DNA of 54,994 nt, taken from contig JAPLYG010000007.1 of NCBI GenBank assembly GCA_026395685.1, positions 1-54,994 of the forward strand. The letters are read 5' to 3'. The notes beneath the pieces were generated by a model. That model saw only the letters and a list, made by a program, of their open reading frames with translations. It had not been told where the DNA came from and did no database searches. Source of the stretch: Candidatus Parcubacteria bacterium (lineage in GTDB: Bacteria > Patescibacteriota > Patescibacteriia > CAIXNZ01). The position numbers and the translations under genes are program-made. Positions within the stretch are counted from its first letter, which is position 1. Each line of letters opens with the position of its first letter. Shown here in pieces: positions 50,136-52,806 of the stretch.

Positions 50136-50164
50136 TTGACTATTATTGCAAAATATGTTAATTT
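50136..50164 (+). promoter_or_regulatory. Promoter of DGR target gene
   Basis: TTGACT-17-TAATTT. Confidence 0.5.
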
Positions 50165-50266
50165 TTAGGCGGTTTCGAACCTTAGGAATTCCCCTTTGAG
50201 GGTAAATAATCCGGTCATGCGACCGGACATAAAGCCGGCGGGCTAAAAACGCAAAGGAGGTTTGTC

Positions 50267-50983
50267 ATGACGACACAAGTTGTCACCGACGAACAGTACG
50301 GCAAGGTAGCCAAGCGTATGCACGAATTGCAGGAGCGTCTGGCTAAGGGAGCAGTTGAATTCCAGCCAGTGATGGATGGTTTGCAGCAGCTGATTGAAGG
50401 AAAAAGCGTGGTCGAGGCGCCAAACCCGGAAAAGAAGCTGGCGGACATGATCGCTGACTGGCAGATTTTTTACCGCGAGGTTTTCGGCCAGGAAGTGGAT
50501 TTTTCCGGGCTGAAAATTCCCGAGAGGAGAAAAGGCTTTGACCGCCTGATCATCCTGGCCCAGGGCATGACACCCCAGCGCCTCTACGACAAGTGCAAGC
50601 AACTTTTCCCGACCTGGAAATGGACAGAGAAAGACCTTGACGAAATCGTGACTTCGGACAGAACGGCAAAAGACGGAGCGTATGCCATCTGGGTTAGAGA
50701 TCGTGTTGAGGCTGATAAGGAGCTAAAAAACCTGTCGGCAAATGCTCTTAAAGAGAAAAAGATCAACGGCATTACCCTGGAAGAAAGGTTCGTTTATGAG
50801 CTCACGTACTTCAGGGAGTGTGGCCGGCATCTGGATGGGCAAAATGTGACACTGTGTTCGGGTTCGCGCTATTCGGATGGGGATGTGCCTAGCGTCGGCT
50901 TCTACACTGACAAGGTCTACGTCGATTACTACAACCCAGACGATGCTAATGCGGGCCTGCGGTCCCGCGCAGTTTCTTGCTAA
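50267..50983 (+). CDS. DGR target protein with C-terminal C-type-lectin-like variable domain
   Basis: C-terminus CSGSRYSDGDVPSVGFYTDKVYVDYYNPDDANAGLRSR coincides with VR; SD aaaggaggtttgtcATG. Confidence 0.92.
   Translation: MTTQVVTDEQYGKVAKRMHELQERLAKGAVEFQPVMDGLQQLIEGKSVVEAPNPEKKLADMIADWQIFYREVFGQEVDFSGLKIPERRKGFDRLIILAQGMTPQRLYDKCKQLFPTWKWTEKDLDEIVTSDRTAKDGAYAIWVRDRVEADKELKNLSANALKEKKINGITLEERFVYELTYFRECGRHLDGQNVTLCSGSRYSDGDVPSVGFYTDKVYVDYYNPDDANAGLRSRAVSC
50857..50972 (+). repeat. DGR variable repeat (VR)
   Basis: 116 bp ungapped match to TR; 17 mismatches, all at TR adenines. Confidence 0.96.
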
Positions 50984-51010
50984 CCCTTGAAGCTTGTACC
51001 TTGTACCCTT

Positions 51011-51050
51011 ATCCCGCACTTTTCGAAAGAAAGTGCGGGATTTTCTTTTT
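51011..51050 (+). terminator. Hairpin/terminator downstream of VR
   Basis: ATCCCGCACTTT-tcgaaag-AAAGTGCGGGATttt. Confidence 0.8.
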
Positions 51051-51084
51051 GTGATATAATTAATATGGCTAATACAATCGGCTT

Positions 51085-51112
51085 CGTCCTGTCGCTCGCG
51101 AGCGACAGGACG
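51085..51112. repeat. 28-bp perfect palindrome
   Basis: CGTCCTGTCGCTCG|CGAGCGACAGGACG between VR and TR. Confidence 0.85.
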
Positions 51113-51285
51113 GGTAGCGATTTGCCTTTTTAAAGAAACTGCTTATCTGATCCTGTGGAGCGGTTCACCTGTCTTGACCAAGGCCAGGCCATGGCGGATT
51201 GGCTCAAAACTTAGCTTCGCAACGCGGAGAAACACAGGCAATTTAGAAATAAAAAGCCGGTGACATAGAAGGGAGCAGATAAAAT

Positions 51286-51401
51286 TTCGGGTTCGCGCTA
51301 TTCAAATGGAAATGTGCCTAACGTCAACTTCAACAATGACAAGGTCAACGTCAATAACTACAACCCAGACAATGCTAATGAAAACCTGCGGTCCCGCGCA
51401 G
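51286..51401 (+). repeat. DGR template repeat (TR)
   Basis: Asn-codon (AAY)-rich copy of VR, SGSRYSNGNVPNVNFNNDKVNVNNYNPDNANENLRSRA. Confidence 0.96.
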
Positions 51402-51426
51402 AAGTTTCTCGGGCAAGAAGTCTTTT

Positions 51427-51795
51427 TTAAGGCTTCTTGTTTGTTAAATATTTCTGCCAGCCAGTCGCCATTTTAGAAACTTCCTGCAGTTGGTTCTGCA
51501 GATCCAGATAAGTTTTATCTGGAATTATCGTCAGTTCATTTTGCACACGGATTAATTGTTTTAAAGTTTCTATCTTGGTTCTTAGCTTAGATACAAATAC
51601 AATTTTATTTTCGCTGCTTGATAGCGCGGCTTCAATGGCTAAATTTAAACAATCAAGACAGGAATCTTCAATCCTTTTGCCAATGCCAAACCGGTCTTGT
51701 TTGGGCAGCTTTTTGTTAATTTTATAAATATTTTTGTATAAATCAGCAATATTATGGATAATAGCAGGCGGGGAGAAAGTTTTAGCAGGGATCAT
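51427..51795 (-). CDS. avd: DGR accessory variability determinant (Avd)-like four-helix protein
   Basis: DRFGIGKRIEDSCLDCLNLAIEAAL…KLRTKIETLKQLIRVQNELTIIPDKTYLDLQNQLQEVSKMATGWQKYL; between TR and RT. Confidence 0.8.
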   Translation of the reverse strand: MIPAKTFSPPAIIHNIADLYKNIYKINKKLPKQDRFGIGKRIEDSCLDCLNLAIEAALSSSENKIVFVSKLRTKIETLKQLIRVQNELTIIPDKTYLDLQNQLQEVSKMATGWQKYLTNKKP

Positions 51796-52806
51796 AATTT
51801 TGAAAATATTATTTCATTAGCCAATCTTTTGATTTCCTGGAAAGAATTTAAACGCGGCAAGACTAAAAATCCTGACGTGCAAAAATTTGCGATGTTTTTA
51901 GAAGATAACTTGTTTGAGCTACATCAGGAATTAGAACAGAAAACTTATAAGCATTCAAATTATACTGATTTTTACCTCAAAGATCCAAAATTGCGCCATA
52001 TCCATAAAGCCCAGGTTAGAGATAGGGTGTTGCATCACGCCATATATCGGATTTTATACCCCATTTTTGATAAGAGTTTTATTTACGACTCTTATTCTTG
52101 TCGCAATAAAAAAGGAACACATAATGCGGTTTTGAGATTAGAAAAGTTTTGCAGAAAAATCAGCAGTAATTATACAAAATCCTGTTATTGCTTGAAGTGT
52201 GATGTCAGGAAATACTTTGACACTATTGATCATAAAATACTTTTTAAGCTGATTAAAACGACAGTTAAGGACGAAAATGCTCTCTGGCTGATTAATGAAA
52301 TTATTTTTAGCTTTTATAAAGGTGGCAATCAGGGCAAAGGCTTGCCACTCGGTAATTTGACTTCCCAGCTTTTTGCCAATATCTATTTGAATGAATTGGA
52401 TAAATTCATTAAGCATCGTCTGAAAGCTAAATTTTACTTACGCTATACTGATGATTTTATTATAGTCCACCAAAATGAAATTTATCTTAAAAGATTAATC
52501 CCTGAAATAAGTGAGTTTTTAAAGCAAGAGCTGAAGTTGGATTTACATCCCCAAAAAGTTACAATCAGAAAAATAGGACAAGGCATAGATTTTCTGGGGT
52601 ATGTGGCTTTACCGCATTACAAAATATTGAGGACGAAAACGAAAAGACGGATTTTAAAAAAGTTAGAATTTCGGCGACAGCAGGCGGTTGCGGGCGAAAT
52701 TGCCGGTCAATCTTTTGAACAGGTCAGACAATCTTATCTTGGAGTTTTGAGCCATTGTTATTCTAACAAATTGCGGCAAGAATTGATGCATGAATTTAGC
52801 ATATAA
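51754..52806 (+). CDS. DGR-type reverse transcriptase
   Basis: RDRVLHHAIYRILYPIFDKSFIYDSYSCRNKKGTHNAVLRL, GLPLGNLTSQLFANIYLNELD, LRYTDDFIIV; exact start uncertain. Confidence 0.95.
   Translation: MDNSRRGESFSRDHNFENIISLANLLISWKEFKRGKTKNPDVQKFAMFLEDNLFELHQELEQKTYKHSNYTDFYLKDPKLRHIHKAQVRDRVLHHAIYRILYPIFDKSFIYDSYSCRNKKGTHNAVLRLEKFCRKISSNYTKSCYCLKCDVRKYFDTIDHKILFKLIKTTVKDENALWLINEIIFSFYKGGNQGKGLPLGNLTSQLFANIYLNELDKFIKHRLKAKFYLRYTDDFIIVHQNEIYLKRLIPEISEFLKQELKLDLHPQKVTIRKIGQGIDFLGYVALPHYKILRTKTKRRILKKLEFRRQQAVAGEIAGQSFEQVRQSYLGVLSHCYSNKLRQELMHEFSI

What the first reader, a model, noticed from the sequence alone, without database searches (positions are those of the whole stretch)
50136..52806. Complete diversity-generating retroelement with clean adenine-only VR/TR divergence
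Seen directly: VR (50857-50972) and TR (51286-51401) align over 116 bp without gaps. I count 17 differences, each at an A in TR (to G, T or C), with no change at TR C, G or T. About 38 TR positions are A. Many variable codons are AAY in TR and become GAT, AGC, GGC, TAC or ACT in VR, plus GAA to GCG. VR forms the last ~39 codons of a C-type-lectin-like protein (CSGSRY…VPSV…DD…LRSR). A DGR-type RT (LPLGNLTSQ, YTDD) lies downstream with an Avd-like protein. Established: A-specific mutagenic retrohoming is the hallmark of DGRs, which are reported as common in CPR bacteria. The biological role of this target is unknown.
Basis: partly seen in the sequence, partly recalled or inferred. Interest (0 to 1): 0.92.

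Follow-up and report, generated by a model that had tools for sequence, protein, structure and literature searches.

The report
Self-mutating gene cassette in Patescibacteria
This tiny, host-dependent bacterium carries an intact genetic machine that deliberately scrambles one end of one of its own genes, and comparing it with about 100 related copies shows two features I could not find described: the template RNA has its own folded 5' domain that ends exactly where the copied region begins, and in most relatives (not this one) the machine contains a slippery DNA tract that looks like an on/off switch.

Summary
VR 50857-50972 and TR 51286-51401 align over 116 bp without gaps. All 17 mismatches lie at TR adenines (P = 2.8e-10). 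With RT, Avd and target this is a complete diversity-generating retroelement (DGR) of the Patescibacteria RT lineage. The C-type-lectin fold of the target is not shown.

(1) avd is antisense to RT and lies between TR and RT. This holds in 99 of 110 Patescibacteria RT loci with a nearby Avd; avd is on the RT strand in the phage DGRs where it is annotated.
(2) The TR is preceded by an RNA domain with overwhelming covariation (three-way junction). It has no Rfam 15 match. Its closing helix ends at the TR start (median 1 nt, 76 loci). A model built without the window finds it at 51134-51286 (39.8 bits). A stem-loop follows the TR. The TR RNA is probably a stand-alone ncRNA whose 5' helix stops reverse transcription.
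(3) In relatives, not in this window, about 70% of cassettes carry a poly-C or dinucleotide tract at the avd 5' end or just before RT motif 4 (in frame : out of frame 22:46 and 3:16). This looks like phase variation of hypermutation.

Novelty of 2 and 3 rests on Rfam and the held library only.

The parts
50267..50983 (+). target (variable) protein gene, 238 aa, with no recognisable N-terminal domain; C-terminal ~39 codons are the VR
   Evidence: ORF; homologues with hypervariable C-termini in 11 of 98 genomes searched, own included; no Pfam, PDB, phage or plasmid relative
50857..50972 (+). variable repeat (VR)
51011..51041 (+). terminator-like stem-loop ending the target gene transcript (stem 13 bp + T-run)
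51052..51060 (+). candidate extended -10 promoter (TGATATAAT) for the TR RNA, 226 nt before TR
   Evidence: sequence; TATAAT-like hexamers are enriched 220-280 nt upstream of TR across 82 loci, + strand 76 vs - strand 38. Consensus match only
51085..51112 (+). hairpin P0 of the TR-RNA leader (near-perfect palindrome)
   Evidence: fold; similar hairpin at the same place in L057, L058, L130
51134..51286 (+). conserved structured leader (three-way junction): P1 51143-51154 with 51271-51282, P2 51215-51229, P3 about 51235-51261; ends at the TR start
   Evidence: model R2, built without the window: 39.8 bits, E 2e-6 in 382 kb, alignment; covariation in relatives; own fold recovers P0-P3
51286..51401 (+). 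template repeat (TR)
51410..51443 (+). stem-loop just 3' of TR (15 bp), containing the avd stop codon; candidate 3' end of the TR RNA
   Evidence: z -6.35; such a stem-loop in 70% of 82 relatives vs 2.4% of control windows
51427..51795 (-). avd (122 aa), antisense between TR and RT; 5' end overlaps the RT 5' end by 42 nt
   Evidence: PF22296 bAvd 61.1 bits, cut-off 40; NF033474 7e-17, below its cut-off of 80 bits; phrog_3206
51754..52806 (+). DGR reverse transcriptase (350 aa), motif LPLGNLTSQ, YTDD
   Evidence: phrog_1423 380 bits; best solved-structure match 8ub7; tree

Best explanation
An intact DGR of the Patescibacteria lineage that diversifies the C-terminus of one cytosolic-looking protein. 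The template is probably a stand-alone ncRNA of about 380 nt: its own promoter behind the target gene's terminator, a 5' domain (hairpin plus three-way junction), the TR, then a terminator-like stem-loop. The RT-Avd complex recognises this RNA, copies the TR with A-specific misincorporation, and the cDNA replaces the VR by retrohoming. The closing helix P1 of the leader ends at the TR start, so I infer that it is the roadblock that ends reverse transcription and thereby sets the TR boundary. Because avd is antisense 3' of the TR, the long sense spacer that primes cDNA in phage BPP-1 cannot exist here in the same form; recognition must move to the 5' domain and/or the short 3' stem-loop. Shown by sequence: the cassette, A-only divergence, the covarying leader, its position, the 3' stem-loop, antisense avd. 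Inferred: promoter, transcript ends, binding, RT stop, current activity.
For: A-only mismatches, repeated in 82 relatives, 1407 of 1443 at TR A. Leader: 19 of 23 pairs with double changes in a sequence-only alignment of 26, covariation score 0.718 vs shuffled 0.326 sd 0.019 and slid 0.13-0.25; 64 loci 0.859 vs 0.256 (alignment fitted to the model). G-U pairs place the RNA on the TR/RT strand. Distance from leader end to TR start: median 1 nt, 75 of 76 within -20 to +40. 61 of 71 genome-wide model hits lie upstream of a DGR RT on the same strand, 60 of them at 459-600 nt; in the window's genome the only hit is this locus. Stem-loop after TR. RT assignment. Antisense avd 99 of 110.
Against: No expression or read data: transcript ends and current activity are untested. 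The window's own promoter is a consensus match. P1 of the window has one A-G mismatch. 13 of 95 loci gave no leader hit, and one R2 hit (L179) is on the wrong strand. The 3' stem-loop may serve as terminator, RT-binding element or both.
Confidence: 0.85

Rival explanations
1. The DGR is an inactive relic: VR was written once and RT/Avd no longer work.
For: Single VR copy, no population data. In relatives many avd or RT genes are out of frame, so an off state is common.
Against: RT, Avd and VP are all open and intact here, there is no non-A divergence between VR and TR, the leader and 3' stem-loop are intact, and the close relative L057 keeps the same cassette with 18 of 19 mismatches at A.
Confidence: 0.12
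2. The leader structure is a regulatory element (attenuator or riboswitch-like) controlling RT or VP expression rather than part of the template RNP.
For: It lies in the 5' region of a transcript; a terminator-like stem-loop follows the TR.
Against: Its 3' boundary is fixed to the TR start (median 1 nt), not to the RT or VP start; TR and 3' stem-loop separate it from RT; it occurs almost only at DGRs.
Confidence: 0.1
3. TR and RT are co-transcribed as in BPP-1 and the reverse complement of avd doubles as the structured spacer that primes cDNA.
For: Same order TR then RT on one strand; the TR-RT distance is conserved (median 420 nt).
Against: That distance is accounted for by avd; a terminator-like stem-loop with a T-run follows the TR in most loci; the covarying structure found is 5' of TR.
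Confidence: 0.15

Closest known systems
DGR clade 2 (Patescibacteria-restricted) of Roux et al. 2021 (PMC8144416)
   Same: host lineage; cellular DGR; target without transmembrane or other recognisable domain; VR at the C-terminus
   Different: that paper's main text does not contain the words avd, orientation or accessory; the leader RNA and frameshifting tracts are not in what I read
Bordetella phage BPP-1 DGR (mtd/avd/TR/brt)
   Same: RT, Avd, A-specific TR to VR transfer, VR at the 3' end of the target
   Different: BPP-1 order is mtd, avd, TR, spacer, brt all on one strand; its structured element is the spacer 3' of TR and the 5' flank of TR is avd coding sequence (PMC12875486). Here avd is antisense 3' of TR and the conserved structure is 5' of TR
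Contingency loci (phase variation by simple sequence repeats, e.g. Campylobacter, Neisseria)
   Same: in RELATIVES only: G8-13, (GA)n, (GT)n or (CT)n tracts in a coding 5' end with about one third in frame
   Different: the switched gene would be the hypermutation machinery; the window itself has no long tract

Membership tests
Diversity-generating retroelement | VR/TR pair with mismatches confined to TR adenines | tested here: met
   17 of 17, P 2.8e-10
Diversity-generating retroelement | RT of the DGR type (LGxxxSQ motif, DGR RT relatives) | tested here: met
   LGNLTSQ; best solved-structure match 8ub7; 85 Patescibacteria RTs form one side of the tree against 8 phage DGR RTs, 100/95 (no non-DGR outgroup)
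Diversity-generating retroelement | Avd accessory protein | tested here: met
   PF22296 61.1 bits, cut-off 40
Diversity-generating retroelement | target with C-type-lectin (CLec) fold carrying VR at its C-terminus | tested here: inconclusive
   VR is C-terminal; fold not shown
Diversity-generating retroelement | active mutagenic retrohoming in the population | not testable with these tools
   needs reads or a culture
BPP-1-type cassette | avd upstream of TR on the RT strand; structured spacer between TR and RT | tested here: not met
   avd antisense between TR and RT; BPP-1 itself:
Known Rfam RNA family | leader or 3' stem-loop matches an Rfam 15 model | tested here: not met
   no match at E <= 1 for 50970-51480; none in the leaders of L162, L175, L084, L077
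Phase-variable (contingency) locus | long simple-sequence repeat in avd or RT of this window | tested here: not met
   site holds only TTC TCC CCG CCT in avd; no tract

The most novel reading that the evidence does not exclude
Patescibacteria DGRs are a mechanistically distinct subclass. The template is a dedicated ncRNA with a 5' three-way-junction domain whose closing helix stops the RT at the TR boundary; avd is antisense; and in most members hypermutation itself is switched on and off by slipped-strand phase variation of avd or RT. The window's pair (window and L057) would be a branch that lost the tract and is fixed ON, since the four other RTs of its clade carry G9-10 tracts.
Probability: 0.7. 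Interest if true: 0.88.

Novelty: new variant of a known kind. Interest (0 to 1): 0.76.

Why it matters
Patescibacteria are among the richest hosts of DGRs, yet what I could read of DGR biochemistry comes from one phage, BPP-1. A different template-RNA architecture, with a covarying 5' domain that fixes the TR boundary, gives a concrete route to reconstituting these systems and to new targeted mutagenesis tools. It also gives a sequence signature (a covariance model) for finding TRs without needing a VR. If the tracts in avd and RT of relatives are real switches, targeted hypermutation in these symbionts is itself bet-hedged, which bears on why DGR activity is so rarely caught.

Tried and rejected
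Target relatives in viral contigs, phages and plasmids: none; RT in viral contigs: none. A covariation test of the 3' stem-loop on a MAFFT alignment was not usable because loops differ in length, so I used stem-loop energy and position against control windows instead. First leader model R1 scored the window weakly (15.8 bits, E 1.9); only R2 gave a firm hit. Hypothesis that antisense avd doubles as a structured spacer: set aside after the 3' stem-loop and the 5' domain were found. A supposed TR downstream of a G003 target is a terminator repeat. Not held: Wu 2018, Paul 2017 and Weinberg 2017; from memory the last lists RT-associated RNA motifs, so prior description of the leader cannot be excluded.

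Full report
Observation. VR 50857-50972 and TR 51286-51401 align over 116 bp with no gap. There are 17 mismatches, every one at a TR adenine (A>G 12, A>T 3, A>C 2; 38 A in TR; P = 2.8e-10). No other place in the 55 kb matches more than 38 of the 78 non-A positions. The target ORF is 50267-50983, RT 51754-52806, Avd 51427-51795 on the minus strand. Avd matches PF22296 above its cut-off. It also matches NF033474 (DivGenRetAVD) at 7e-17, but below that model's curated cut-off. The RT matches phrog_1423 with 380 bits. Its best solved structure is 8ub7 (E 1.2e-38), well before group II intron RTs; that 8ub7 is the BPP-1 DGR RT is from memory, as the entry is only titled 'Reverse transcriptase'. The genome (1.24 Mb, Patescibacteria-like; the window is the whole contig C17) has one RT of this kind and one target.

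Relatives. 34 of 98 genomes in the 'relatives' sample and 99 of 294 in the phylum sample hold this RT (own genome included). Scanning about 95 cassettes without prior knowledge of their repeats found TR/VR pairs in 82; 1407 of 1443 mismatches fall at TR A (pairs were kept only if at least 75% of mismatches lay at A, so this percentage leans upward). The Patescibacteria RTs lie on one side of a well-supported branch against eight phage DGR RTs (100/95). The window pairs with L057 (73% identity) within a six-member clade (no non-DGR outgroup). Roux et al. describe a Patescibacteria-only DGR clade 2 whose targets lack recognisable domains (PMC8144416); this locus fits that description.

Cassette order. 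Avd lies between TR and RT on the opposite strand. Of 119 Patescibacteria RT loci, 110 have a bAvd within 4 kb, and in 99 it is antisense and upstream of RT (the 11 exceptions are mostly divergent or fragmentary RT matches). In every phage DGR I opened with an annotated or recognisable Avd it is on the RT strand, including BPP-1. The distance from TR end to RT is about 420 nt in Patescibacteria, with avd inside it.

A structured leader on the template RNA. Between the target gene and the TR lie 250-430 nt of non-coding DNA. k-mer counts showed position-specific motifs there. A plain MAFFT alignment of 26 leaders folds into a three-way junction in which 19 of 23 pairs show compensatory double changes. 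The covariation score is 0.718 against 0.326 sd 0.019 for shuffles (0 of 500 reach it) and 0.13-0.25 for slid structures; 96% of cells are paired. G-U pairs such as GU:10 at columns 12/103 and UG:20 at columns 23/92 would be mismatches on the other strand, so the RNA is on the TR strand. A covariance model (R1) finds the element in 64 loci at E <= 0.2. A second model (R2), built from those without the window, adds 18, among them the window at 51134-51286 with 39.8 bits, E 2e-6 in 382 kb (L179 is on the wrong strand). It finds nothing in the ten phage DGR loci. In whole genomes, 61 of 71 R1 hits lie upstream of a DGR RT on the same strand, 60 of them at 459-600 nt. In the window's own genome the only R1 hit, weak on its own, is this locus. 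The element ends at the TR start: median distance 1 nt, 75 of 76 within -20 to +40. The window's sequence, folded alone, shows the same helices P1, P2 and P3 plus a strong upstream hairpin; comparison with L057 and L058 shows compensatory changes in P1. Rfam 15 has no match.

3' side. Right after the TR, 70% of 82 loci have a stem-loop of -10 kcal/mol or better within 60 nt, against 2.4% of control windows inside RT and avd and 12% after VR. A T-rich tail follows on the TR strand. In the window it is 51410-51443, z -6.35, and holds the avd stop codon. TATAAT-like hexamers cluster 220-280 nt before the TR; in the window TGATATAAT sits at 51052-51060, behind the target gene's terminator-like hairpin (51011-51041).

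Mechanism. The simplest reading is a stand-alone TR ncRNA (promoter, 5' domain, TR, terminator hairpin). RT-Avd copies the TR with errors at A, helix P1 stops the RT at the TR start, and the cDNA retrohomes into VR. In BPP-1 the structured element is 3' of the TR and the RT stop lies in avd coding sequence (PMC12875486), so the arrangement here is close to mirrored. Binding, priming site and stop are inferred, not shown.

Relatives: a probable switch. While checking 'split' RTs I found (GA)n and other tracts at one RT site 6-66 nt before motif 4: 19 of 127 loci, 3 in frame and 16 out of frame. Nearly all other such repeats in 685 kb lie at the avd 5' end: 70 of 126 loci, G7-G13 or dinucleotides, between the avd start codon and the conserved domain. 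Of the readable ones 22 are in frame and 46 out of frame, the 1:2 ratio expected of random phase (P = 1.0 against 1/3). Same-family (f100) avd genes L151 and L152 are in frame and out of frame respectively. No such repeat occurs in 66 kb of phage DGR sequence. The window and L057 lack the tract; four other RTs of their clade (L058, L059, L130, L142) have G9-10 in avd. Assembly or sequencing error at homopolymers could add noise, but dinucleotide tracts of 13-54 nt at the same sites argue against a pure artefact. No paper in the held library combines DGRs with phase variation in the searches made.

Orphan targets. Genome G003 (same family, 100% complete) has six target paralogues and no detectable RT. 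At the hypervariable columns 91 of 96 codons are NNY, against 583 of 1109 in the rest of the genes (P 1e-18; columns chosen by their alignment to TR AAY codons). This is the imprint of past A-mutagenesis from AAY codons.

What is not shown. The target's fold and function, transcription, current activity, and novelty against papers that I could not open.

Noticed in passing
Relatives L058-L211 (avd 5' end, antisense to the RT start): Poly-G/C (7-13) or dinucleotide tracts inside the avd 5' coding end in 70 of 126 loci, 22 in frame and 46 out of frame with the upstream start: looks like phase variation of Avd.
   Followed up: partly
L180-L186, L188, L190, L194, L203, L206, L207, L210, L214, L217; in frame: L127, L136, L161: (GA)n/(CT)n/G10 tract inside the RT gene just before motif 4, mostly splitting the RT into two frames.
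   Followed up: partly
G003 (L033, L043, L049, L052, L054, L055; L056 is a public copy of the L033 place, isolate STA_35): Six dispersed target-gene paralogues with NNY-type hypervariable codons in a genome without detectable RT or TR: fossil or fixed repertoire of a lost DGR.
   Followed up: partly
L066, L088: Cassettes with several VRs served by one TR (three VRs in L066; two in L088, one on either side of the RT).
   Followed up: no
L072 (G002:C3) and L050 (G002:C52): One contig starts inside a VR and another inside a target gene, as if the assembly broke at polymorphic VR sequence; possible sign of activity.
   Followed up: no
G000:C4:65693-65974 (-): Second, weaker bAvd-like four-helix-bundle match (38.8 bits, below cut-off) in the window's genome without a DGR RT.
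   Followed up: no
window 24651-24658: C8 homopolymer, the only simple repeat of the kind searched for in the 55 kb, just upstream of a 488-aa ORF (24781-26247) with a hydrophobic N-terminal segment and repeated Cys-rich motifs.
   Followed up: partly
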